Of a stretch of 64,000 nt of DNA, positions 5,624 through 61,715 are shown piece after piece. The notes under the pieces are model-generated. The model saw only the letters and a list, made by a program, of their open reading frames with translations, did not search any database and was not told where the DNA came from. Both the position numbers and the translations under genes were made by a program. Within the stretch, counting starts at the first letter, position 1; each line of letters begins with the position of its first letter. The DNA is from Deroplatys truncata (lineage: Eukaryota; Arthropoda; Insecta; Mantodea; Mantidae), in NCBI GenBank assembly GCA_030765065.1, contig CM060984.1, positions 106,125,488 to 106,189,487 on the forward strand, written 5' to 3'.

Positions 5624-6391
5624 ACCATGACTGTGTGTGTTTATGTGAACAGCATGACTGTAAAACAACATGTCGAATGAATACAAACTTGGCATTGATT
5701 GTGAACACAAACTTTAAGTTCAATTGATGTACATATATGAAATAAGATCAAGATAATTTCCCTACTTCATACTACACCTTACCCCTTGATTTTTCCAAAG
5801 TTTTTATTTTCTGAAAACTGTTCTAACGATTTTAATTAAAATACCGTATATTTAAAGACATTTACATGAAACAATACATGTCTTGAATTTTTGGGGGAAT
5901 GACCTCTGCACTCCTGCTCATTCGGAAGGAATTTTATATAATCTTGTATAACTGGTGAACGTCAAGCACACGCACTACACAAAAACTGTACATCTCTTCA
6001 AAATACACGCGTTATTTATAATATTATGTTTGTGGCATAAGCCATTTCCGAAATATTCGTGATTAATAGTTTGCACTGTTCAATACATTGTTGTTTGCAT
6101 GGTTGTTGTAAAGAAATTTCGACATTCAGTTGTTTCTCGCGATTGCATGGAAACAGTACGGAGTTTTTTAAAGCCACCATATAGCGTCCATTTTTAAAAC
6201 ACTTCACTATCGCTGTTCCTTTGTATATATAGCGATATATGTAATTGATCTATTTCTAGATTAAATGAATTAGGTAGAAAAATAAACATTCTTAAGAATA
6301 ATTTGTATACCCACCAATAAACGATAGAGTGTAGAAAAAGTCATGAATGCAGGGTATAAACGTCTCATGCAAATGCAACACATCAGATGTT
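5464..6391 (-). repeat. R860 full-length copy, diverged, with (CT)n core
   Basis: A complete older copy. It starts with a TCTCTACCATGTACATAGTGG block matching the young consensus TCTCTACTACGTATAGTAAG. It then carries CCGAGATTTCACCG, a microsatellite core, the GAACAGCATGACT block, AACGATTTTAATTAAAAT and AACTGGTGAACG, and ends GTAGAAAAAGTCATGAATG...CAACACATCAGATG. Here the usual GT tract has been replaced by CT. No transposase-like open frame is present. Confidence 0.7.
5590..5618 (+). repeat. (CT)n microsatellite
   Basis: About 14 uninterrupted CT units, embedded in the core of the R860 copy at the position where other copies have GT. Confidence 0.95.
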
Positions 6392-20798: not shown

Positions 20799-21284
20799 GC
20801 CGTTCGTGAGAGTGTACGCGAGAACGGAAACAAATCAATTGCTCGTCTAGCGCAAGAATTAGGGCTTTGGCCGACCACAACTTGGAAAATTCTGCATCTG
20901 GACTTGAAGTTTCACGCTTACAAAATGGTGTTAACTCAAGAACTAAAGCCTAATGACCATAGGTTGTGCCGTGTATTCGCTAACTGGGCTATGGAGCAAT
21001 TGCAAGCTGACCCAGATTTTTGTTGAAAAATCATCTTCAGCGAGGAAGCCCACTTTTGGATGGATGATTATGTTAAGAAACAAAATTGCCACTACTGGAG
21101 ATATCACAATCCAATGCAGATTCAAGAACGACCACTTCATCCCAAAAGGTTGCTGTGTGATGTTGATTTTGGTATGGTAGAAACATTGGTCCATATTTTT
21201 TACAAGATGAAGATGGAGAAGCTCTAACTGTCAATGGAGTAAGATACCGGGCTCTTATAAGGGACTATTTTTGGCCTCAATTGG
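20799..21284 (+). pseudogene. Transposase, middle part with altered first catalytic residue
   Basis: The second helix-turn-helix (ARLAQELGL...TTTWKILH) leads to the catalytic block. The usual FSDEAHF motif of this family reads FSEEAHF here (about 21030-21057), so the first aspartate is glutamate, and a TGA stop lies just before it. Two further stops follow near 21220. The piece is non-functional. Confidence 0.7.
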
Positions 21285-21653
21285 ATGGTATGGAATTTCA
21301 GAAACATCTGGTTCCAGCAAGATAGTGCCACATGTCATACTGCTCTCGAAACAATCGATCTTTTGAAGGAGAATTTCAGAGGTTTCATCACTTACCGTGG
21401 TGGTGATGTTAACTGGCCCCCGACGTCATATGATTTAACGCCGTTGGATTACTTCTTCTGGGGTTATGTTAAATCTCGAGTTTATGTCAACAAGCCAGAA
21501 ACAGTAAATGATCTTATGAATAACATCACGCGTTATATTCGTGAAACTGAGCCTAATTTACGTTCTTCCGTCTTTGAAAATTGGGTCAACCGTATACGCG
21601 CAACCCAACGAAGTCGCAGCGGTCACTTAACTGATGTTCTCTTCCACACGTAA
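21285..21653 (+). pseudogene. Transposase, C-terminal catalytic part
   Basis: A 122-codon frame with the second catalytic aspartate in FQQDSATCHTA and the third in YDLTPLDYFFWGYVK. I count 41 residues between the two aspartates, the spacing of the DD41D group. The C terminus VNRIRATQRSRSGHLTD is typical of these transposases. It ends in a TAA about 100 bases before the right terminal repeat. Confidence 0.8.
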
Positions 21654-25742: not shown

Positions 25743-26621
25743 ATTACTTTCTCTACTACGTATAGTAAGTAGGGGAAGTATTGCATTCCACCCAAAAATT
25801 CGATACCGAGATTTCACCGGAAATACATGTTTTGAGACCCACTGAATCCAAAAAAAGCATTTTTAGAAACATGTCCGTGTGTGTGTCTGTGTGTGTGTGT
25901 GTGTCTGTGTGCGTGTGTGTGTGTCTGTGAACAGCATAACTCAAAAACGAACAGTCGGATAAACACCAAACTTGGTATTTAGGTTCAGTATCTTCCAGAG
26001 ATGCGACACGAAGGTTTTCAAGAAAATCCCCCCACCCCAGACTACCCTTTACATGGAACATTTTTCGAAAATTTTAATTTTCTCAAAAATGGCTCTAACG
26101 ATTTTGATGAAAATATCATATGTTTAACATAATGTCATGAGAAATGAAATGTATATCTCGAATTTTCTGGGAATGTCTCCAAAAGTATTCTTCATTGTGA
26201 ACGACTTTTGCATAACTGGTAAACCGTAAGAGAAAGACAGAATTTTACTACACAAAAAATGTAGATCGCGTTAAATTACACAACCTATGTTATATACATT
26301 TCTTTTGTTGAGTGAACCGTTTTCGAGATATTGCTTGTTATTTCCTTAAATTTTTCAGTACTTATACTTTTTCTCAAATTCGTTATTCATTTTTTTTATG
26401 TCCTGGACATGCAAAGAGAATGGAATGCGCCACATAGCAACCAGCGTTAAAATATTTGACTATCGCTTATAACCTACCATATTCCGCTTGCATCTACAAG
26501 AAAATTACCAATAAGATTGACATCTCGATATCTCGATTAACATGAAGCATATGGAGAATAGGCGTTTGTAAAATTAGATTGTACAAGAGTAGAGAAAGTC
26601 ATGTGAGTGTAACACATCAGA
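25743..26621 (-). repeat. R860 full-length young copy, left arm of an inverted pair
   Basis: Starts TACTTTCTCTACTACGTATA and ends GTAGAGAAAGTCATGTGAG, then ACACATCAGA and a T-run. It contains the GT microsatellite, the block GAACAGCATAACTCAAAAAC and the AAAAAAT junction between the two internal modules (about 26390-26402). A minus-strand frame (MFHVKGSLGWGDFLENLRVA..., 25756-26061) is identical over about 50 residues to that of the copy at 27596-28460, in keeping with their recent common origin. Confidence 0.85.
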
Positions 26622-27595: not shown

Positions 27596-28460
27596 TCTGA
27601 TGTGTTACACTCACATGACTTTCTCTACTCTTGTACAATCTAATTTTACAAACGCTTATTCTCCATATGCTTCATGTTAATCGAGATATCGAGATGTTAA
27701 TCTTATTGGTAATTTTCTTGTAGATGCAAGGGAAATATGGTAGCTTTTAAGCGATAGTCAAATATTTTAACGCTGGTTGCTATGTGACGCATTCCATTCT
27801 CTTTGCATGTCCAGGACATAAAAAAATGAATAACGAATTTGGGAAAAAGTATAAGTATTGGAAAATTTAAGGAAATAACAAGCAATATCTCGAAAACGGT
27901 TCACTCAACAAAAGAAATGTATATGACATAAGTTGTGTATTTTAACGCGATCTACATTTTCGTGTAGTAAAATTTTGTCTATCTCCTATGGTTTACCAGT
28001 TATGCAAAAGTCGTTCACAATGAAGAATACTTTTGGAGACATTCCCAGAAAATTCGAGATATACATTTCATTTTTCATGACATTATCTTAAACATATGAT
28101 ATTTTCATCAAAATCGTTAGAGCCATTTTTGAGAAAATTAAAATTTTCGAAAAATGTTCCATGTAAAGGGTAGTCTGGGGTGGGGGGATTTTCTTGAAAA
28201 CCTTCGTGTCGCATCTCTGGAAGATACTGAACCTAAATACCAAGTTTGGTGCTTATCCGACTGTTCGTTTTTGAGTTATGCTGTTCACAGACACACAGAC
28301 ACACACACACACAGACACACACACGGAAATGTTTCCAAAAATGCTTTTTTTGTATTCAGGAGGTCTCAAAACATGTATTTCCGGTGAAATCTCGGTATCG
28401 AATTTTTGGGTGGAATGCAATACTTCCCCTACTTACTATACATGGTAAAGAAAGTAAAAA
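27596..28460 (+). repeat. R860 full-length young copy, reference orientation
   Basis: It begins TCTGATGTGTTACACTCACA, then TGACTTTCTCTACTCTTGTA. Module A runs to CCAGGACATAAAAAAA (about 27828) and module B from TGAATAACGAATTTGGG to AAAGTAAAAA. In module B are the block TTCGTGTCGCATCTCTGGAA, TGCTGTTCACAG, a CA tract (28291-28324), GAATTTTTGGGTGGAATGCA and the end hairpin around CTTACTATACATGGTAAAG. Open over FHVKGSLGWGDF...(28154-28387) but without recognised protein homology. Confidence 0.85.
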
Positions 28461-29110: not shown

Positions 29111-30014
29111 TACTGTCTCTACCACGTACATAATAAGTAGAGGTGGTGTTGCATTCCACCCAATTTGATATCGGGATTTCAACGGAAATACATGTTTTGA
29201 GGACCTCGGATTAAAAAAAAGCATTTCCAGACAAAGTTCCGTATGCATGTATGAGTGTGTGTTTGCGTGTGTGTGTGTGTATGTGAACAGCATAACTCAA
29301 AAATGACTATTCGGATAAATACCAAACTGGGTATTTAGGTTCAGTACCTTCAAAGATGCTACACAAAGATTTTCAAGAAAATCCCTCTATCCGCAACTAA
29401 CCTTTATATGAAACATTTTTCGAAAACTTTTATTTCTTAAAAATTACTAGCAGGTTTGATTAAAATACTATATATATATATATATATATATATATCAATC
29501 ATATTTACATGACAAATAAAATGCACATCTTAAATTTTCTGGAAATAGCCTGTGAATTCCACTCCATTCACAAGGAATTTTATTATATAACTGGTAAACA
29601 TTAGGGAATAACGAAATGTACAAGACAAAAAATGTAGATATCTTTAAAGTACACAATTCATTTCGAATAACCTTTCTGTGGCAACAGCCATTTCCGAGAT
29701 ATTGGTTATTAATGGTTCAAATTGTTCACTAACCTGGCATTCCTTTAAAGTCTCGTCGATTTTCAGTTGTTTCTCGCAATGGCATGGAAAGAGTACGAAA
29801 TTTTAAGGCCAGCCTATATCGTCCAGTTTTTAAACATCTGACTATTGCTTTTCTCTTTGCACTTATAAAGAAATATGCAACATGGCTATATTCCGCAAAT
29901 ATTTATCTCCAGTAAAATGAAGCAGATGGAAAGATAAACTCTCGTAAGAATAAAATGTATAGCCAATAATAAACACTAAAGGGTAGAGAAAGTTATGTGT
30001 ATGTAACACATCAC
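29111..30014 (-). repeat. R860 full-length copy, older
   Basis: Landmarks in order are TCTCTACCACGTACATAATA, GGGATTTCAACGG, a GT core (about 29258-29280), GAACAGCATAACTCAAAAAT, a (TA)n tract at 29468-29495 in the middle of module B, AACTGGTAAACATTAGGG, TCCGAGATATTGG and GGTAGAGAAAGTTATGTG. Module A/B junction lacks the A-run seen in young copies. Confidence 0.75.
29468..29495 (+). repeat. (TA)n microsatellite inside R860
   Basis: Fourteen TA units expanded from the short AT block seen at the same place in other copies. Confidence 0.9.
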
Positions 30015-31703: not shown

Positions 31704-32902
31704 GGTATTTTTTATCCGTTACATGAAACGTACAGCATGTTTTAACAAACTGCTGAAAACAAGCTGGTACTATGCACTTTATGGCGAGATTAGGTAGAAA
31801 ACAAGAGAAAGCCTGAGCTTTAGCAACCACATATCCCTGCATGGAAAAGCAAAGGGGTAGGTGGAAGTTATGAACAAGCAAACAAACAGCAAAGCCTACC
31901 CGCGTAATAGAATAAAGAATGTGAAAATATATGTATTAAGGGGAGAGCTTAGGGCTCGGCAGCATCCCGAAAACAGCGAGGAAGTTCCATAAAGTCCATA
32001 AAGAACGCGGCGAGGAGTAAAGAAAAGCTGGATAACACAAGCCGATTGCAAAACAGCTGGAGTGGAATGGGGAAAATAGCAGAAAGGCAAAGAAGTAGAA
32101 AGGGAAGACAGAATAATAAACACCTAGCGAAGACGTGCACAAAAATATGCCTAATACATGCGGTTTAGCTTACCTGAGATGCCTCATTTGTGAGAAGGGA
32201 AGACCTATTAATTTATACAAATATAAGTTGTCATCAGGCTTAGAATTTTACGTGTCTGTTAAATTAGCGATGCGTACTTTTAAGGAGTAAACACAAAGTA
32301 TAAGTGTCATCTCTTCATAAATACTCTAAAACTGAGTTTAGAGGTTTTTTGTTTAAAGAAAGGTTTTTGTTTACGATAGCTGAAAAATGTAGTGATAAAA
32401 CATACATTCGTATTTCTTTAACTAACCCTTTCACTGTCTCTTATGTTAAAGAAACTCGTTAATGTAGTGTACACTGGGTGCAAAAAAAAGTGGCGATTTA
32501 ATGAACCGCGTGCTAAGTTGGTAGGAGATTTCGCTCCGTACATGGCACCATCCCGCCCCTTACATAGTTCTTGCTACCAAGTTCATTGGTGACTTTTGCA
32601 TAGCCTTTTTTCGCGATGGCGGATGTACACTAGAGGCTAGGATCCAAGACAGTTTTAGATTCGTTGAAAAAGCATAACCAACTCAGTTCTATTAATTGCT
32701 ATTCCGTAAGCTGGAAAAGAAGAATCAGAGTGAAAAAGTATGTAAGCTGACATTGGGGTATTTTATCTCCAGAGAAGTTTAGAATGCCTTGTGTTTTACC
32801 GTGAAAAATGGATTGAAATGGAGAATTTCATGATGTGTTATCATAGAGTAGCGGTACGTTAAGCTTAAGATCGGTGGTTGGAATCCTGACTATGGCATTG
32901 CA
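31704..32902. other. No recognisable feature
   Basis: Unassigned. A segment at 32470-32650 (starting CACTGGGTGCAAAAAAAAGT, with CGCGATGGCGGATG) could be a transposon end but no partner end was found. Confidence 0.35.
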
Positions 32903-33817
32903 TTTTTACTTTCTCTACTACGTATAGTAAGTAGGGGAAGACGTATTGTATTCCACCCAAAAATTCGTAACCCAGATTTCACCGGAAATACATGTTTTGA
33001 GACCCCCTGAATCCAAAAAAAAAAAGCATTTTTGGAAACATGTCCGTGTGTGTAACTGTCTGTGTGTCTCTGTGAACAGCATAACTCAGAAACGAACAGT
33101 CGGATAAACATCAAACTTGGTATTTAGGTTCAGTATCTTCCAGAGATGTGACACGAAGGTTTTCAGGAAAATCCCCCCCCAGATTACCCTTTACATGGAA
33201 CATTTTTCGAAAATTTTAATTTTCTCAAAAATGACTCTTAACGATTTTGATTAAAATATCATATGTTTAAGATATTTTCATGACAAATAAAATGTATAGG
33301 TGTCTTAAATTTTCTGGGAATTTCTCCAAAAGTATTCTTCACTGTGAACGACTTTTGCATAACTGGTAAACCATAAGAGATACACAAACTTTTACTACAC
33401 AACAAATGTAGATCGCGTTAAAATACACAATTTATGCCATATACATTTTTTTTGTTGAGTGAACCATTTTCGAGATATTGCTTGTCATTCCTTTAAATTT
33501 TTTAATACTTATTTTCTCAAATGGGAATTCGTTATTCATTTTTTTGTCTTGGATATGCAAAGAGTATTAATCTATGGCAAAGGGAATGGTGCTGCACCTA
33601 GCAACCAGCTATTACGAAATATGTATATGCTTAAAGGCTACTGTATTTCTATATTGCCCTTGTAAATATATATTCCCCTTACATCTACAAGAAAATTAGC
33701 AATTAGATATAGTCTGCAAATGTTTGTCTCGATTAACATGAAGTAGATGAAGAATAAGCGTTTTTAAAAATAGTTTGTACAAGAGTAGAGAAAGTCATGT
33801 GAGTGTAACACATCAGA
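32903..33817 (-). repeat. R860 full-length young copy with long module A'
   Basis: Starts TTTTTACTTTCTCTACTACG, has a short GT core (about 33045-33070) and the module junction at 33536-33546, and ends GAGTAGAGAAAGTCATGTGA. Its module A is the longer A' variant, with an extra segment containing GCAAAGAGTATTAATC and CAAAGGGAATGGTGCTGC, also seen in the array at 57218-57490 and 58340-58617. Confidence 0.85.
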
Positions 33818-35413: not shown

Positions 35414-36275
35414 TCGGATGTACTGCACTCATACGACTTTCTCTACTCTTGTAGAAACCATTTTACAAACGCTTGTTCTCCGTCTACTTCATGTTAATCG
35501 ATATAAACATTTACAGAAACTTATTACTAATTTTCTTGTAGGCGCAAGGGAATGTGGTAGGCTTTGAGCAATAGTCAAATGTTTTAAGAGCTGGTTGATA
35601 GGTTGAGCATTCCATTCTCTTTGCATGTCCAGGACATAAACAAACGGATAACGGATTCTCATTTGAGAAAAAGTATAAGTATTGGAAAATTCAAACAAAT
35701 AACAAGGAATATCTCGGAAATGGTTCACTACACAAAAAGATGTATATGACGTAAATTGTGCGTTTTAAGGAGATCTATATTTTTTGTGTAGAAAAATGTT
35801 GTCTATCTCATACGGTTTATCAGTTATGCAAAATCAATTCAGAATGAAGGACTTTGGGGATATTCCCATAAAATTCAAGATATATATTTCATTTGTTATG
35901 AAAATATCTTGAATATTTAAGATTTTAATCGAAATCGTTAGTCATTTTTGAGAAAATCAAAATTTTCAAAAAATGTTCCATGTAAGGAGCAGTTTGGGAT
36001 GGGGAATTTTCTGGAAAATCTTTGTGTCGCATCTTTGAAGGCCACTAAACCTAAATACCAAGTTTGGCATTTATCCGTCTTTTAGTTTTTGTGTTATGAT
36101 GGTCACAGTCACAGACACACAGACAGGCACACACACGGACCTTTTTATAAAAATACATTTTTGGGCGATTTAGAGAACCTCAAAATATGAATTTTTGGTG
36201 AAATTTTGGTATCGAATTTTTGGGTGGAATGCAATACTTCGCCTACTTACTATACGTAGTTGAGAAAGCAAAAAT
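35414..36275 (+). repeat. R860 full-length copy
   Basis: Begins TCGGATGTACTGCACTCATA, then GACTTTCTCTACTCTTGTAG, and continues through the whole series to a short CA core (about 36107-36138), TTTTTGGGTGGAATGCAATA and GTTGAGAAAGCAAAAA. It is immediately followed by another R860 piece in the opposite orientation. Confidence 0.8.
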
Positions 36276-36649
36276 GTTTGCAATTTTTTATTTTCTCGAA
36301 AATGTATCTAACGATTCTTGAATTTTCTGGGAATAGCATATAAAACCTCTTCATTATAAATGACTTTTGTGTAATTGGTAAACTGTAAGAAACCGGCAAA
36401 TGCAATTTTTGTGTCATTAACCATTTCGAGATGTTGTTTGTTATGGGTTTTTAATTTTTAAACACTTATACTTTTATCCCTTGGTCGTGTAGAATTACAA
36501 AGCCGTCACATAGCGATACATCTTTTATAAAGCTATATCTTTAATCTACTGCTTCTTTATTATACCTAAAACAATATGTATAAATATTTAATGAATGTCT
36601 CTCTGGATTGTATCAAGATGTATACATAAAATAACCTTTTGTAAGAATT
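36276..36649 (-). repeat. R860 fragment, old, interrupted by foldback element
   Basis: TTTTATTTTCTCGAAAATGT, AATTTTCTGGGAATAGC, TAATTGGTAAACTGTAAG, ACATAGCGATAC and finally CCTTTTGTAAGAATT align with module B to A. The last 11 bases are repeated at 36919-36929 after the inserted foldback element. Confidence 0.65.
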
Positions 36650-36918
36650 GAAACGGTAAAATCACACAGTTCAGTACCATAACCTGGACTTGAACCACGG
36701 ATCTTCCGGCTTCCGTCCAACTGAACTACCATGAGTAATCAGTCGAGGAATTTAAAACAGTGCCGGTATGTTGCCATGGTAGCTCACTTGATGAGAGCAA
36801 CCGGAAACAGAAGATCCGTGGTTCAAATCCCGGTTTAGGCATTGATTTTTCAGTCTGATTCGACCTTACCAACATTGTTCTACATACGCCTTGTGTGAAA
36901 GAACAATTAATTACCATA
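36650..36918 (+). mobile_element. Foldback element with tRNA-like arms, copy 1 (269 bp)
   Basis: Flanked by the 11-bp duplication TTGTAAGAATT (36639-36649 and 36919-36929). The short left arm carries a tRNA-like sequence on the minus strand (TTGAACCACGGATCTTCCGG). The longer right arm carries it on the plus strand: CCATGGTAGCTCACTTGAT, then AGATCCGTGGTTCAAATCCC and GGCATTG. The tRNA-like unit has A- and B-box motifs and, in consensus, a paired acceptor stem (GCCATGG with CTATGGC). The tail is TCTACATACGCCTTGTGTGA then AACAATTAATT. Related copies are at 40549 and 61379. Confidence 0.7.
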
Positions 36919-36972
36919 TTGTAAGAATTCTTTGTAGAAGAGTGAGTAGATAAATCCATGTGAGTGCAATAG
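36919..36972 (-). repeat. Continuation of interrupted R860 copy
   Basis: TTTGTAGAAGAGTGAGTAGA and CCATGTGAGTGCAATAG correspond to the R860 terminus (TTGTACAAGAGTAGAGAAAG, CATGTGAGTGTAACA). Confidence 0.65.
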
Positions 36973-39460: not shown

Positions 39461-40548
39461 AAGGACATGCCATTTGAAATTACAAATCGCTTGACTGGTG
39501 AGAGCGTTAAGTCTGAATAACTCCAGTTGTACTCTTCTCTGTAATGTTAAACTGACCGACTTCTTTTATTCTAGCTTAAAGGATGATCAAGGTGAAAATA
39601 AGTCCATTTTGGTCAAAACCTTAGACTTGATTTTCCTCCTTTTCATTATCACAACATCCCATTTTAAATATCTCAAAAATAAATTAACGTTGTTTCCTCT
39701 TATATTAAATCAGTTTTAAACAGTTATACAGTATTTTCCTCTCCAAATTTTTGTATCTAAACAAAATTCCAGCCCCCATTAGTTTATATGAATTTTGGGA
39801 TCCCTCAACATAAAATTTCAGGTAACATATAACAGCACCAACGAAAGAAAAGTATCTTGTAGGCGGAAAACTGCCTTTGGTTTTTCTCTCTGTAGCCAGG
39901 GGCCATTAATAATCCGATGGAAATTACTTACAAAAACGAATACGTGGTTTAATGAATTTTCTCACCGTGGAAACGGCAAACAAATATAATCAAACATTTT
40001 CAACCCCATTTGATCAGTCAGATTCACAAAACCTACTAGGGTTTTGTGAATCTTTCAGGTATAAAACTTTATTTCTAGTTTATAAACCGTAAAATTAGGT
40101 TTTTGCAGCAGAAATGGGAGTAGCTTTTAAATCAAAATTAATACTACCGACTGTAAAACTTTGCCATTGATCATCTTTTGTCAAAATCGGAGATTTATGA
40201 AACTTGTAAGTTAGCGAGATTATTTACACAAATTTCTTCAGTAAACGTAGCACGGAGTTAAATTTTCTCATAGTTTTTTTTTACAAATCACTTCCATTAG
40301 TTCAAAAAGTGCCTTAAATATTATCAAACAAATGGCGGTGTGAAAGAAGGCCTGATGGCCATAACTCTACTAGAATAAGTAAATACATTTATTTATAAGT
40401 GTCACGCAAAATAAATTGCTTCCCATTATTTGGGTGGCATCAGTAATAGGATTCCTCAGATTATGTTTTTGGAAAATAAAACTTAAAACGTTTGGAATAT
40501 AATTATCGTTTTATTGCAATCAACCAAATTTTTCTTCAACATTTACAA
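39461..40548. other. No gene recognised; one perfect hairpin
   Basis: AT-rich unassigned DNA apart from the inverted repeat at 40021-40052. Confidence 0.4.
40021..40052. repeat. Perfect 13-bp hairpin
   Basis: GATTCACAAAACC, loop TACTAG, then GGTTTTGTGAATC. It is not at the edge of any recognised element. Confidence 0.9.
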
Positions 40549-40906
40549 CTTTTGGAAAGATAGAATCAGATGATTGAAAAATTCAATGCCATAGCCGGGA
40601 TATGAACCACGGATCTGCTGATCTCCGTCCGGTTGCTCTAACCACTGAGCTACCATGGCAACATGCCGGCACGCCATTAAATTCTCCAGCTGATTTGCAT
40701 TTTTCCCGGTAAACCACAAGGAAATCTCAAATGTATTGCGATGTCATACCCCAATGGCGACTTACATTCTTTGTAAGTACTTAAGTCCCGGGCTTTTAGT
40801 TTCAACCACTATTAGGTCAATTAATGGAATTGAATTTTTCAGTTATCTGATTCTACCTTTCCAACCCTGTCCAACACATGGCTTGTGTGAAAAAACAATT
40901 AATTCT
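40549..40906 (+). mobile_element. Foldback element with tRNA-like arm, copy 2 (358 bp)
   Basis: Flanked by ATTTACAA (40541-40548 and 40907-40914). The left arm carries the tRNA-like sequence on the minus strand (ATGAACCACGGATCTGCTGA, GAGCTACCATGGCAACATG). The right arm has lost most of the tRNA-like part but keeps AATTGAATTTTTCAG, ATCTGATTCTACCTTTCCAA, CCAACACATGGCTTGTGTGA and AACAATTAATT. Same orientation as copy 1. Divergence of the right arm makes it less palindromic. Confidence 0.65.
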
Positions 40907-40914
40907 ATTTACAA

Positions 40915-41384: not shown

Positions 41385-42222
41385 ATCACATGCATACTAA
41401 GTAGAGAAGGTATTGCATTCCACCGATAAATTCGAGATTACTGCGGAAAAGTTGTTTGAAGCATTTTATAAAATTCCCGCGTGTGTGCGTGCGTGCGAGA
41501 ACAGCACAACTCAAAAAAAGATATGTCCGATAAATACAAAACTTGGTATTTAGGTTTAGCACCTTTCAAAGCTACGACACCTTTCAAGAAAATCTTCCCC
41601 ACCCAAACTACCCTTCACAAGGAAGAGTTTTCAAAATGTTTCGACTTTCTCAAAAATGGATTTAATGATTTTGATTAATTTGATTAAAATACCATAACTT
41701 TATTTGCATGACCAAATTACATTTTTATCTTTAATTTTCTGGGAATAGCCTGTGAAGCCCTGTTCATTTAAAGGAATGTTGTATAATTTGTTAACTTGTA
41801 AACTATATGAAATAGACGAAAACGTACTATACAAGTGTAGATTTCTTTAAAATACACAATTTATTTAAAATAATATTTTGTGACATCAGCCAATTCCGAG
41901 ATATTCGTTGTTATTGCTTTGAATTTTCCATACTTTGTAATTTTTATAAAATTCTGTTGCTGTTCAATTGTTTCTCGCGATATCATTGTAAGAGTATGGA
42001 ATTTCTAGATCAGCATTTAGCAACATAGTTTTTAAAGATCTAAACACCGATTCGGTATCCTCTATCCACCTAGTATCTTCAACGAAATGTGTAACGTGAA
42101 TTACTACTTCAAAGGTTTATCTCGATTAACATGAAATAGAATAAGCTTTTCTAAGAGTAGTTAGGAACTATAAAAATAAACAGTAGAATTAGAAGGTGAT
42201 GTGACTGTAACATCGATTTTTT
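41385..42222 (-). repeat. R860 full-length copy, old
   Basis: Runs from ACTAAGTAGAGAAGGTATTG through a short GT core (41479-41495), GAACAGCACAACTCAAAAAA, CCTTTCAAAGCTACGACACC, ATTTTCTGGGAATAGCC and CCAATTCCGAGATATTCG to AGAAGGTGATGTGACTGTAA. Confidence 0.75.
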
Positions 42223-47667: not shown

Positions 47668-48330
47668 TCCGTTTGGTCATAATAATGTAGCTCATGAGAC
47701 AAAGTTTTTGTCAGTAATATTTACTTTTCCACATAACTGCCTTTCATATCTATAAATTTGCTGTAACACTGCACCAGCTTCCTTAATCCTTCGACATACA
47801 AGTCTGCCGCCTGGTACTTGAATTAGTTAATAACGCTCGTGAGTTTATTGTCGGTTGGAAAATGTTGTCCACCCAGCCACCGTTTCAAATGCAAGAAGAG
47901 GAAATAGTCGCTTGGTGCCAGATCGGGACTGTACGTAGGGTGATCAAAGAGTTTCCAACGAAACTCTTGAATCCTCTCTTTGGTTTTGGCAGCGGTGTGC
48001 GTGCGTGCGTTGTCGTGCAGAAGGATGGTGCAAGACGACAGTTTCCCGCGGCACGTCTCTATCTGGTAGGCGTTGTACAGTACACGTCTGCTGTAATTGT
48101 TTATCCACGATCCATGAAACCAAGAACGCCTTTGTCGTCCCAAAATACGATAGGCATCATTTTGTGATTCGTATACGGCGATTGCTTACACTTTTTTGGG
48201 TTGGTGAACCGGAACGGCACCACTGCATTGACAATTGTTTCGATTCTGCGTTGGTGTACGCTATCCATGTCTCGTCGCCCATAACAATGTGGGAAAACAA
48301 ACCATCTCCATCTTATCTAGCGCTCCAAAA
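47668..48330 (-). pseudogene. Mariner-family DD34D transposase, 5'-truncated
   Basis: Minus strand. It carries GDETWIAYTNAESKQLSMQW around 48220-48282 (first catalytic aspartate in GDETW), then MMPIVFWDDKGVLG in another frame. LLHDNARTHTA (about 47990-48022) has the second aspartate, and YSPDLAPSDYFLF (about 47895-47935) the third. I count 34 residues between the second and third, the mariner spacing. The helix-turn-helix region is absent and frameshifts interrupt the rest, so it is dead. It is a different lineage from the element at 15850, with a distinct motif sequence. Confidence 0.8.
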
Positions 48331-52169: not shown

Positions 52170-52768
52170 TATAGAACATTTCTCTAAATATTTGGTTTTC
52201 TAAAAATGATTAACCATTTTGATTATAATAGCATATATTAAAGTTATTTACATGACAAATAAAATGTATATGTTGAATTTTCTAGGAATAGCCTTTGATG
52301 TCCTTTTCATTTGGAAGGAATCCTGTATAAACTTGTATAACTGGTAAACGTTAGGCAATAGACGAAAACGTAGGTACTATATAAGAAACGCAAGTCTCTT
52401 TAAAGTACACAATTTATTTCAAATAACTTTTTTGTTCCATCACAATTCATTGTTAATGCTTTGCATTGTTCAATTCCTCGTCATTATTTTCAAGTCCTGT
52501 TGACATTCAGTTGTTTCTCGCGGCTGCATGGAAAGAGTATGGAAATGTATGGTCAGTATTTGGCGTTCAGTTCTGAAACATTTTACTTTCGCTATTCCCT
52601 TTGCAATTATAGCAAAATGTGTCATGCAACTAATTTTGCAAAGATTTGTCTCGATTAAAATGAAGTAGATAGAAAAATAAGCTTATGTAAGAATAGTTTT
52701 TATACCCATTAATAAATGACAAGAGAGTAGCGAAAATCATGTGAACATATTACATTAATTTTTTTTTC
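52170..52768 (-). repeat. R860 right part, after LINE insertion
   Basis: Resumes at TATAGAACATTTCTCTAAAT (consensus CATGGAACATTTTTCGAAAA) and continues through AACCATTTTGATTATAAT, AATTTTCTAGGAATAGCC, AACTGGTAAACGTTAGGC and TTGTTTCTCGCGGCTGCATG to GAGAGTAGCGAAAATCATGT. Confidence 0.8.
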
Positions 52769-57217: not shown

Positions 57218-59852
57218 AAATCTGATGTGTTACACTCACATGACTTTCTCTACTCTTGTACAAACTATTTTTACACACGCTTATTCTCCATCTACTTCAT
57301 GTTAATCGAGATTTGCAGACTCTATTTTATTGCTAATTTTCTTGTAGATGTAAGGGGAAATTATATTTACCAGGGCAATATAGAAATACAGTAGCCCTTA
57401 AGCATAGACATTAATCTTAATAGCTCGTCGCTATGTGCAGCACCATTCTCTTTGCCACAGATTAATACTCTCTGCATATCCAAGACAAAAAAATCTAATG
57501 TGTTACACTCACATGACTTTCTCTACTCTTGTAAAAATTATTTTTACAAACGCTTATTCTCCATATCTTCATGTTAATTGAGATATCGAGATGTCAATCT
57601 TATTGCTAATTTTCTTGTAGATGCAAGGGGAATATGGTAGGTTTTAAGCGATAGTCAAATATTTTAAGCGCTGGTTGCTATGTGGCGCATTCCATTCTCT
57701 TTGCATGTCCAGGACATAAAAAAAATGAATAACGAATTTGAGAAAAATTATAAGTATTGAAAAATTTAAGGGAATAACAAGCAATATCTCGAAAACGGTT
57801 CACTCAACAAAAAAATGTATATGACATAAATTGTGTATTTTAACGCGATCTACATTTTTGTGCAGTAATATTTTGTCTATCTCTTATGGTTTACCAGTTA
57901 TGCAAAAATCGTTCACAATGAAGAATATGTTCACAGCACACACACACACACACACACACAGACACACACTCGGACATGTTTCCAAAATTGCTTTTTTGGG
58001 ATTCAGGGGGTCTCAAAACATGCATTTCCAGTGAAATCTCGGTATCGAATTTTTGGGTGGAATACAATACTTTCCCTACTTACTATACGTAGTAGAGAAA
58101 GTAAAAATCTGATGTGTTACACTCACATGACTTTCTCTACTCTTGTACAAACTATTTTTACAAACGCTTATTTTCCATATGCTTCATGTTAATCGAGATA
58201 TCGGGATGTCAATCTTATTGCTAATTTTCTTGTAGATGCAAGGGGAATATGGTAGGTTTTAAGCCATTGTCAAATATTTTAAGCGCTGGTTGCTATGTGG
58301 CGCATTCCATTCTCTTTGTATGTACAGGACATAAAAAAATCTGATGTGCTCACTCACATGACTTTCTCTACTCTTGTACAAACTATTTTTACAACCATTT
58401 ATTCTCCAATCTACTTCATGTTAATCATGATAAACATTTGCAGACTCTATCTTATTGCTAATTTTCTTGTAGATGTAAGAGGAATATATATTTACAAGGG
58501 CAATATAGAAATACAGTAGCCTTTAAGCACATACATATCTCTTAATAGCTGGTTGCTAGGTGCGGCGCCATTCCCTTTGCCACAGATTAATACTATTTGC
58601 ATATCCAAGACAAAAAATGAATAACGAATTCCCATTTGAGAAAATAAGTATTGAAAAATTTAAGGGAATAACAGGCAATATCTCGAAAATGGTTCACTCA
58701 ACAAAAAAAATGTATATGACATAAGTTTTGTATTTAAACGCGATCTACATTTTTTGTGCAGTAAAATTTTGTCTATCTCTTATGGTTTACCAGTTTACCA
58801 AAAGTCTTTCACAATGAAGAATACTTTTGGAGACATTCCCAGAAAATTCAAGATATTCATTTTATTTGTCATGAAAATATGTTAAACATATAATATTTTA
58901 ATCAAGATCGTTAGAGAAAATTAAAATTTTCGAAAAACCTTCCATGTAAAGGGTAATCTGTGGTGGGGGGATTTTCTTGGAAACGTTCGTGTCGCATCTC
59001 TGGAAGATACTGAACCTAAATACCAAGTTTGGTGTTTATCCGCCTCTCCGTTTCTGAGTTATGCTGTTCACACACAGACTCACAGACAGACACACAGACA
59101 CACACGAACATGTTTTCAAAAATTCTGTTTTTGGATTCAGAGGGTCTCAAAACATGTATTTCCTGTGAAATCTCGGTAATCTCCCCTCCTTACTATACGT
59201 AGTAGAGAAAGTAAAAATGAATAACGAATTTGAGAAAAAGTATAAGTATTGGAAAATTTAAGGGAATAACGAGCAATATCTCGAAAACGGTTAATTCAAC
59301 AAAAAAAAATGTATATAACATAAGTTTTGTATTTTAACGCGATCTACATTTTTTGTGCAGTAAAAGTTTGTCTATCTCTTATGGTTTACCAGTTATGCAA
59401 AAGTCGTTCAGAATGAAGAACACTTTTGGAGACATTCCCAGAAAATTCGCGATATACATTTCATTTGTCATGAAAATACCTTAAACATATGATATTTTAA
59501 TCAAAATCGTGTAAGCCATTTTTGAGAACATTAAAATTTTCGAGATATTTTCCATGTAAAGGGTACTCTGGGGTGGGGGGATTTTCTTGAAAACCTTCGT
59601 GTCGCATCTCTGGAAGATACTGAACCTAAATACTAAGTTTGTGTTTATCCAACTGTTCGTTTCTGAGTTATGCTGTTCACAGACAGACAGACACACACAC
59701 ACAGACACACAAACAGACAAGTTTCCAAAAATGCTATTTTTGGATTCAGGGGGTCTCAAAACATATATTTCCGGTTAAATCTCGGTATCGAATTTTTGGG
59801 TGGAATACAATACTTCCCCTACTTACTATACGTAGTAGAGAAATTAAAAAAA
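57218..59852 (+). repeat. Modular head-to-tail R860 array
   Basis: Seven segments in one orientation: A' (57221-57490), A (57491-57720), B with a 220-bp internal deletion (57721-58108), A (58109-58339), A' (58340-58617), B (58618-59217), B (59218-59850). A starts TCTGATGTGTTACACTCACA and ends GGACATAAAAAAA. A' is longer, ending CCAAGACAAAAAA. B starts TGAATAACGAATTTGAG and ends GAGAAAGTAAAAA. All joints fall in a run of five to seven A. The B units hold CA tracts (57935-57969 and 59690-59705). The array is the youngest-looking R860 material here. Confidence 0.8.
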
Positions 59853-61044: not shown

Positions 61045-61378
61045 CCACTGACGTATACGGAAAAACCTTACTACACAAAGGATGTAGATGTCGTTATAAT
61101 ACAAAGTCAATCTCATTTTTTTGCACTAACCATTTCCGGAATATTCTTTATTATTGATCTGAATTAACAAATAGACTATACTTTTTTAGCTATTCATTTC
61201 TTGCAAAGAAGTGAATTTCAAAGCCATCACATAGTGACCCACTTTTAAAAACTTGATCATCCCTTAAGCCTACTGTAATCCCTTTGCAGCTACTACAAAA
61301 TGTGTATTTAAGCCATTTTTTCAAGTATGTATCCCAAATAACATGAAAAGAGAGAAGAATAAGCCTTTGTAATAATAG
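61045..61378 (-). repeat. R860 fragment, interrupted by foldback element
   Basis: CTTACTACACAAAGGATGTA, AACCATTTCCGGAATATTC, CCATCACATAGTGACCCAC and AGAATAAGCCTTTGTAATAA align with the module B/A half of R860. It is interrupted after GTAATAATAG (61369-61378). Confidence 0.65.
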
Positions 61379-61661
61379 AATGAATTGTTCTTCTACATAA
61401 GCCGTGTGTTGGACAGGGTTGGAAAGGTAAAATTAGACGACTGAAAAATTCAATGCCATAGCCGGGATTTAAACCACGGATCTCCCAGTCTCCGTCCGGT
61501 TGCTCTAACCACCGAGCTATCATGCACCGAGCTATCACTGCAACAATTAAGTTCCCCATTTTTCCAGGTAAAGCAACCGGACGGAGATCGGGAGATCCGT
61601 GGTTCAAATCCCCGTTATGGCATTGAATTTCTCAGTCATCTGATTCTACCTTTCCAACTTG
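61379..61661 (-). mobile_element. Foldback element with tRNA-like arms, copy 3 (283 bp)
   Basis: Flanked by the 10-bp duplication GTAATAATAG (61369-61378 and 61662-61671). Here the longer arm is on the left (AATTGTTCTTCTACATAAGC, GTGTGTTGGACAGGG) and the short arm on the right, ending CTACCTTTCCAACTTG, so the orientation is opposite to the copies at 36650 and 40549. The arms mirror each other over about 90 bases, including GGATCTCCC, CTCCGTCCGGTTGCT and AATTCAATGCCATA. Each arm carries the tRNA-like A- and B-box sequence. GCACCGAGCTATCA is duplicated at the centre. Confidence 0.75.
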
Positions 61662-61715
61662 GTAATAATAGTTTGTAGAGGTGAGTGTAAAGAAAGTCAT
61701 GTGAATGTCGTGGTT
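61662..61715 (-). repeat. Continuation of interrupted R860 copy
   Basis: GTAATAATAGTTTGTAGAGG then GTAAAGAAAGTCATGTGAAT is the R860 terminus. Confidence 0.65.

What the first reader, a model, noticed from the sequence alone, without database searches (positions are those of the whole stretch)
36639..36929. tRNA-bearing foldback element with target-site duplication
Three elements (36650-36918, 40549-40906, 61379-61661) are palindromic, with a short and a long arm. In the two better-preserved copies each arm carries a tRNA-like sequence with pol III boxes. They are flanked by 8, 10 and 11 identical bases. A SINE head duplicated in inverted form as a mobile unit is unusual. The transcript would fold into one long hairpin. 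Variable duplications suit LINE-driven retroposition, while 8-11 bp would also suit a Mutator-like transposon.
Basis: partly seen in the sequence, partly recalled or inferred. Interest (0 to 1): 0.8.

Follow-up and report, generated by a model that had tools for sequence, protein, structure and literature searches.

The report
tRNA-carrying foldback Penelope-type mobile element
A very abundant non-coding mobile element that carries a tRNA-like sequence appears to be copied into this large eukaryotic genome by the unusual two-ended mechanism of Penelope retroelements, rather than by the LINE machinery that moves ordinary tRNA-derived repeats.

Summary
In detail: three palindromic insertions, each with one short and one long arm and duplicated target bases. 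A fourth, older, one-armed copy lies at 32735-32907.

They belong to a family built on a 318-bp non-coding unit (tRNA-like head, linker, 46-nt tail, body); one arm word has 11,813 exact places genome-wide.

Outer ends lie near two fixed points of the unit, 46 nt apart: 30 of 33 foldbacks have one of each, 3 could not be classed, none has two alike. An unselected sample has 15 head-to-head and 0 tail-to-tail pairs. Head-to-tail units and 5'-truncated one-armed copies occur. This is the published signature of Penelope-like elements (PLEs), which cut and extend both target strands and start reverse transcription at two adjacent internal RNA sites. Five of 7 resident PLE foldbacks show it too (12-13 bp duplications, one tail).

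LINE twin-priming, Mutator-type transposition and chance adjacency fit poorly. Not shown: which PLE drives it (no shared 3' region found) and what the tRNA does; a T5 run after it should stop pol III before the tail.

The parts
36639..36649 (.). target duplication, left copy, element 1 (TTGTAAGAATT)
36650..36918 (+). foldback element 1: short arm left (antisense), tRNA-bearing long arm right (sense); degenerate copy
   Evidence: short end at 36650 read by eye (could not class it)
36774..36846 (+). tRNA-like segment of element 1 (5-base gap in the alignment, below Rfam threshold)
36874..36918 (+). 3' tail of element 1 (unit positions about 109-154)
36919..36929 (.). target duplication, right copy, element 1
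40541..40548 (.). target duplication, left copy, element 2 (ATTTACAA; about 13 bp with one mismatch, to 40553, by eye)
40549..40906 (-). foldback element 2: left arm with full tRNA-like head and body (antisense), right arm sense with tail
40587..40659 (-). tRNA-like sequence (Rfam RF00005, 42 bits)
40660..40840 (-). body segment (unit positions 137-318)
40865..40906 (+). 3' tail of element 2
40907..40914 (.). target duplication, right copy, element 2
61369..61378 (.). target duplication, left copy, element 3 (GTAATAATAG)
61379..61661 (-). foldback element 3: long arm left (antisense, tail about 61379-61418), short arm right (sense, 61569-61658)
61662..61671 (.). target duplication, right copy, element 3
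32735..32907 (+). fourth, older copy of the same family, one orientation only (unit 205-309 and 44-83); no target duplication found

Best explanation
The three elements are copies of a non-autonomous retroelement that moves by the Penelope-type mechanism. A 318-nt non-coding unit (tRNA-like 1-73, linker 74-108, tail 109-154, body 155-318) is transcribed, in part as RNA of more than one unit or with template jumps. An enzyme of the Penelope-like class (reverse transcriptase plus GIY-YIG nuclease, supplied in trans by a PLE of this genome) cuts both strands of the target about 8-14 bp apart and primes reverse transcription from both cut ends, at two adjacent internal sites of the RNA: after about position 108 on one side and about 154 on the other. 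The two cDNAs grow toward each other, stop at variable places and are joined, leaving head-to-head arms, one short and one with the tail, inside a target duplication. When only one side extends, a one-armed 5'-truncated copy results. SHOWN here: the anatomy, the two end points and the one-short-one-long pattern, head-to-head orientation, tandem and truncated forms, target duplications and empty sites, and the same insertion signature in resident PLEs. INFERRED: dual-strand priming (from published work on another PLE), trans supply by a PLE, RNA of more than one unit. UNKNOWN: the particular PLE, and the role of the tRNA (promoter or processing signal).
For: Ends: of 33 foldbacks with both flanks in hand, 30 have one end near unit 99-116 and one near 149-159; the other 3 have one long end and one end not classed; none is long/long or short/short. 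L084, left out there as too near the edge of its piece, also has one of each. Unselected sample, the first 100 places of an exact arm word, all on C1: 77 clusters, 15 with a -/+ pair, 0 with a +/- pair. In these 15 the outermost matching arms run into the tail word on exactly one side in 11, on neither in 4, on both in 0 (searches compared by eye; a mutated arm or tail would go unseen). Ten copies chosen by arm plus tail, not by foldback: 5 foldback, 3 one-armed, 2 tandem running off the piece. Flank words: 24 of 33 foldbacks share 8-14 bp, most often 13-14, which can include a few bases of the element's ends; two more lie in microsatellites and are not counted; 7 have under 8. Empty paralogous sites for 10 of 25 insertions tested (24 foldbacks and L082). 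Resident PLEs: GIY-YIG search, 149 matches; by eye 10 places hold close -/+ pairs. A piece of L065 passes Pfam's cut-off for reverse transcriptase, pieces of L041 and L066 for GIY-YIG; the reverse transcriptase match in L041 is under its cut-off. Five of 7 PLE foldbacks (L041, L048, L059, L065, L066) share 12-13 bp flank words with about 41-49 bp of tail on one arm only. Literature: cutting and extension of both strands, two internal start sites that delimit the tail (PMC11167929, parts 1-2 of 4 read); inverted pLTRs, mostly head to head, one tail, 8-10 bp duplications, trans mobilisation (PMC3846280, passages).
Against: No resident PLE with the same 3' region was found: in 32 GIY-YIG loci (read as pieces, not all with a 3' end; L039 and L044 overlap) the only good matches to the unit are in L040, a separate insertion, and L042, probably one. 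Seven PLE 3' regions show no convincing similarity to unit 74-170 (best of 14 comparisons reached by 4% of shuffles). The unit lacks the hammerhead motif seen in 23 of the 32 PLE loci. Of 10 one-armed copies with flanks only L082 has a shared word of 8 or more (L005 has 11 with one mismatch by eye), so that part of the model is thin. Two of 7 PLE foldbacks (L039, L043) gave no exact flank word of 9 or more. Whether a LINE shares the tail was not tested. No RNA data. The unit's 3' part does not fold convincingly better than shuffles (z -1.7); neither body nor tRNA shows covariation. Most foldbacks were fetched with foldback queries.
Confidence: 0.8

Rival explanations
1. An ordinary tRNA-derived SINE moved by a LINE; the inverted form comes from twin priming or template switching of the LINE enzyme.
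For: tRNA-like head with a B box and an A box by a relaxed pattern, the strict one failing; short non-coding unit; one-armed 5'-truncated copies.
Against: Twin priming (recalled) inverts an upstream piece and leaves one 3' end; here both outer ends are 3' sites, near two fixed positions, one of each per classed foldback. No A-rich or simple-repeat 3' end (by eye). The T5 run at 79-83 should stop pol III before the tail (T of 4 or more in 49 of 53 arms with an exact B box).
Confidence: 0.1
2. A foldback or Mutator-like DNA transposon (MITE) that captured a tRNA; arms are terminal inverted repeats.
For: Inverted repeats and 8-11 bp duplications in the window copies; uninterrupted host repeats at empty sites.
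Against: The two termini differ by 46 nt in the 30 classed foldbacks; one-ended copies truncated at variable 5' points exist; head-to-tail units occur.
Confidence: 0.03
3. Separate insertions of a one-armed SINE next to each other by chance or by preference for its own sequence.
For: One-armed copies exist.
Against: 15 head-to-head and 0 tail-to-tail pairs; one target duplication round the whole element; joined flanks match uninterrupted host repeats.
Confidence: 0.01
4. The family is an internally deleted derivative of an autonomous PLE that itself carries this tRNA in its pLTR and was not among the loci examined. (A version of the best explanation rather than its opposite.)
For: Same insertion signature as PLEs; only 150 of 13,894 GIY-YIG first-look candidates were scored and 32 loci read.
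Against: No PLE coding remnant recognised in the unit; in the 32 PLE loci the unit appears only as L040 and L042, separate insertions or probably so.
Confidence: 0.25

Closest known systems
Penelope-like elements (Penelope/Poseidon type, GIY-YIG bearing)
   Same: Head-to-head inverted terminal segments, tail of 40-50 nt on one arm only, tandem units, 5' truncation, duplications of about 8-14 bp
   Different: No reverse transcriptase or nuclease frame, no hammerhead motif; the tRNA-like module overlaps the place where resident PLEs have the hammerhead (their GAAA lies about 70-74 nt before the short end, by eye)
tRNA-derived SINEs
   Same: tRNA-like head with pol III boxes, short, non-coding, high copy number, truncated copies
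   Different: Two 3' start sites, inverted double arms, no simple-repeat 3' end (by eye), likely pol III stop before the 3' end
Metazoan non-LTR retrozymes
   Same: Tandem non-coding units of about 150-450 bp; PLEs proposed as their mobilisers (PMC7761336 section 8 and passages; PMC7229834 abstract and passages)
   Different: Retrozymes carry a hammerhead ribozyme; the unit has no such motif but a tRNA-like fold
Helenus (TRIM with tRNA-like sequence in its LTR)
   Same: A tRNA-like pol III module carried in the terminal repeat of a non-autonomous retroelement (PMC10886601: abstract, section 4.1, passages)
   Different: Helenus has PBS, PPT and 4-5 bp duplications; this one has 8-14 bp duplications and PLE-type ends

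Membership tests
Penelope-like elements | inverted, head-to-head terminal segments inside one target duplication | tested here: met
Penelope-like elements | tail of about 30-50 nt on one of the two outer ends | tested here: met
   30 of 33 foldbacks one short and one long, 3 not classed, none both
Penelope-like elements | tandem or partial tandem units | tested here: met
   for example L003, L011, L013, L024, L083; spacings of 318-319 bp
Penelope-like elements | open frame with telomerase-like reverse transcriptase and GIY-YIG nuclease | tested here: not met
   unit is 318 bp, longest frame 105 codons; so at most a non-autonomous relative
Penelope-like elements | hammerhead motif in the pLTR | tested here: not met
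   no CTGANGA on either strand of the unit L011:1687-2004; motif in 23 of 32 resident PLE loci
Penelope-like elements | 3' region shared with a resident autonomous PLE | tested here: inconclusive
   not found in 32 loci or 7 compared 3' regions; most PLE copies were not read
tRNA-derived SINE | tRNA-like head with A and B boxes | tested here: met
   Rfam tRNA in 17 of 18 element loci scanned, up to 53.5 bits; ARAGORN tRNA-Ser(gga) in the 5 good loci given but none in the window; boxes, A box by a relaxed pattern only
tRNA-derived SINE | 3' end shared with a partner LINE | not tested
   no LINE 3' ends were collected
tRNA-derived SINE | pol III transcript that reaches the 3' end | tested here: inconclusive
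   T5 at 79-83, 5 nt after the tRNA; T of 4 or more in 49 of 53 arms; no RNA data
Mutator-like or foldback DNA transposon | identical terminal inverted repeats at both ends | tested here: not met
   ends differ by 46 nt in the 30 classed foldbacks
Retrozyme | hammerhead ribozyme in each unit | tested here: not met
   by motif only
Helenus | LTR element with 4-5 bp target duplications | tested here: not met
   shared flank words 8-14 bp

The most novel reading that the evidence does not exclude
A third class of small-RNA-gene-headed retroelement: after SINEs (LINE machinery) and Helenus/Cassandra (LTR machinery), one that uses Penelope machinery. In it the tRNA fold replaces the hammerhead ribozyme of PLEs and retrozymes as the device that cuts multi-unit transcripts (by RNase P and tRNase Z) into unit-length, perhaps circular, RNA, and each insertion records a dimeric enzyme that assigns one of two RNA start sites to each DNA strand.
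Probability: 0.2. Interest if true: 0.9.

Novelty: new variant of a known kind. Interest (0 to 1): 0.72.

Why it matters
The authors of PMC11167929 write that relatively little is known about how Penelope-like elements transpose; they report two-site, two-strand activity for one purified protein. This family offers very many natural insertions of one small RNA, each recording both start sites, so that model can be tested in vivo. The one-short-one-long pattern suggests that the two strands or protomers use different RNA sites. It also shows that a tRNA head and a SINE-like look need not imply a LINE partner, so PLE-driven families may be filed as SINEs or MITEs in repeat libraries. Nine literature searches in an open-access library listed no tRNA-bearing PLE that I could recognise from titles and abstracts; subscription papers and Repbase were not searched, so priority is not established.

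Tried and rejected
Rejected: LINE twin priming, Mutator-type transposon, chance adjacency (see rivals). Tried without result: covariation in the tRNA (91.6% of cells paired, no better than shuffles); consensus structure of the body; hammerhead by Rfam (cmscan at E up to 5 missed it in the 5 PLE loci given, so 'hammerhead' here means motif only); a partner PLE by the pattern CGAAA...tail (201 places, 100 or so listed; those look by eye like ordinary copies with a chance CGAAA); similarity between the unit and 3' regions of four resident PLE groups. L091 and L092 were fetched because one search suggested two tailed outer ends; both run on into further units beyond the piece, so they do not test the rule either way. 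Three similar cases (C1:6897235, 30359943, 52853052) were not read. Copy number: 3 copies in 80 kb of random stretches, too few for an estimate. The organism was not identified; 'insect-like' in my notes is a guess.

Full report
What is there. The window is a 64-kb piece of a 4.29-Gb genome in 818 contigs. The three palindromes are as described, with flanking duplications of 11, 8 and 10 bp; the 8-bp one is probably 13 bp with one mismatch (by eye). A fourth, older copy in one orientation lies at 32735-32907. In the window only 40587-40659(-) passes Rfam's tRNA threshold (42 bits), and ARAGORN finds no tRNA. Of 20 loci scanned, tRNA matches passed in 17 of 18 with the element and in neither of the 2 PLE loci; there were 32 matches, the best at 53.5 bits. 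ARAGORN reads tRNA-Ser(gga) in the 5 good loci given to it. The RNA of 61379-61661 would be one long hairpin (z -17.2); a 150-nt part of the degenerate first element is not remarkable (z -0.9).

The unit. Locus L011 is a palindrome of head-to-tail units with a period of 318 bp. One of these (L011:1687-2004) serves as yardstick U: tRNA-like 1-73, linker 74-108, tail 109-154, body 155-318. Mapping the loci on U shows that arms start near fixed outer points and end inside at variable points. The short outer end is near 108 (TTGGAAAGG on the other strand), the long one near 154 (GGAATTAATTG).

The rule. One search lists the distinct copies in hand: 33 foldbacks with enough flank, plus L084 near an edge. 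Thirty of 33 have exactly one short (99-116) and one long (149-159) end. The other three each have one long end and an end not classed: L008 at 87, L022 at 205, and the window's first element, whose short end at 36650 is clear by eye. None has two long or two short ends. Most of these loci were fetched with foldback queries, so I looked for samples free of that bias. (a) An exact word of the arm has 11,813 places in the genome and none in the reversed control. The first 100, all on C1, form 77 clusters: 56 single, 6 same-strand pairs, 15 with a -/+ pair and none with a +/- pair. Since exact words were required, a single place may still have a mutated partner. (b) Compared with a second word that runs into the tail (8,909 places; it asks for less of the linker, so the two counts are not nested), 11 of the 15 have one tailed outer arm, 4 none, 0 two. 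(c) Of 10 copies taken from every fourth row of an arm-plus-tail search, 5 are foldbacks with one end of each kind, 3 are one-armed and truncated (at 276, 175 and 287), and 2 are tandem and run off the piece. (d) In 80 kb of random stretches there were 3 copies: one foldback, one partial tandem in one orientation, one fragment.

Insertion. The longest word shared by the two flanks is 8-14 bp in 24 of 33 foldbacks, most often 13-14. The flanks compared include 10 bases of the element on each side, so a few element bases can be part of such a word. Two more foldbacks lie in microsatellites and are left out of that count; 7 have less than 8. Mismatched flank pairs, cut the same way, reach 8 in 3.6% and 10 in 0.6% of 1,056. 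Of 10 one-armed copies with flanks only L082 reaches 8; L005 has 11 with one mismatch by eye. Joined flanks with one copy of the duplication match uninterrupted host repeats (best identity 66-87%) for 10 of 25 insertions tested, among them the first and third window elements. These two sit at the same point of two copies of one host repeat but in opposite orientation, so they are most likely separate insertions.

Link to Penelope. A GIY-YIG search found 149 matches (150 of 13,894 candidates scored) and, by eye, 10 places with close pairs in -/+ order, one of them a longer array. Pieces of L041 and L066 pass Pfam's cut-off for GIY-YIG and a piece of L065 that for reverse transcriptase; L041 also has a reverse transcriptase match under the cut-off. 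A hammerhead-like motif is in 23 of the 32 PLE loci, though Rfam models did not recognise it in the 5 given. Five of seven PLE foldbacks examined share 12-13 bp flank words and have about 41-49 bp of tail on one arm only; L039 and L043 gave no exact word of 9 or more. Published work on a lizard PLE found cutting and extension of both strands and reverse transcription starting at two adjacent internal RNA sites that delimit the tail (PMC11167929, parts 1 and 2 of 4 read). Work on rotifer PLEs describes inverted pLTRs, most often head to head, a 31-bp tail on one of them, 8-10 bp duplications, and mobilisation in trans (PMC3846280, passages). The family has these insertion features and not the coding ones.

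What is missing. No PLE with the same 3' region was found, though few PLE copies were read. The unit has no hammerhead motif. The tRNA overlaps the place where resident PLEs have theirs (by eye). A run of five T lies 5 nt after the tRNA (T of 4 or more in 49 of 53 arms with an exact B box), so a pol III transcript would be expected to end before both start sites; the template RNA is then either read-through or made otherwise. This is the basis of the bolder reading that the tRNA is a processing signal. There is no covariation to support selection on the fold, and no RNA data.

Literature. Nine searches listed no tRNA-bearing PLE that I could recognise from titles and abstracts. 'Short, nonautonomous Penelope elements' are mentioned for butterflies in the passage I saw, without structure (PMC6685494). 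PLEs are proposed mobilisers of retrozymes (PMC7761336, section 8). A tRNA in the LTR of non-autonomous LTR elements is known as Helenus (PMC10886601: abstract, section 4.1 and passages).

Verdict. Observation confirmed; interpretation partly supported; the most likely account is a tRNA-carrying non-autonomous element of Penelope type, a new variant of a known kind.

Noticed in passing
window 52227-52440, 29492-29702, 41688-41904, 5840-6056, 59276-59496, 33255-33478, 58678-58897, 27885-28103, 35709-35916, 26112-26331 and others: An abundant dispersed repeat of more than 200 bp, ten or more copies in the window at 66-80% identity to the joined flanks of L002.
   Followed up: partly
window 47823-48182 (-): Transposase remnant: Pfam DDE_3, 28.1 bits, just under the cut-off of 28.6; mariner-like by eye. 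The frame at 21261-21650(+) looks similar by eye but has no Pfam match.
   Followed up: partly
window 36600-36960 and 61350-61700: Elements 1 and 3 are inserted at the same point of two copies of one host repeat, in opposite orientation, which suggests a target preference.
   Followed up: partly
G000:C1:78552925-78553748: Three copies of the arm at exactly 318-bp spacing on one strand: a tandem array of the unit.
   Followed up: no
G000:C16:99264118-99270119: Five GIY-YIG matches in the order -+-+- within about 6 kb: apparently a repeated PLE foldback.
   Followed up: no
L016 1299-1478, L032 1341-1515: Unit junctions that differ from the usual AATTAATTCCATTAATTG (shorter in L016; joined inside the tail in L032), possibly template jumps.
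   Followed up: no
L011:1687-2004: The unit length is divisible by three and one sense frame is open for 105 codons per unit; 1-2 base indels between copies argue against coding.
   Followed up: partly
L040:2629-2747: A 119-bp miniature foldback of the family with a 14-bp shared flank word, about 0.9 kb from a GIY-YIG match.
   Followed up: yes
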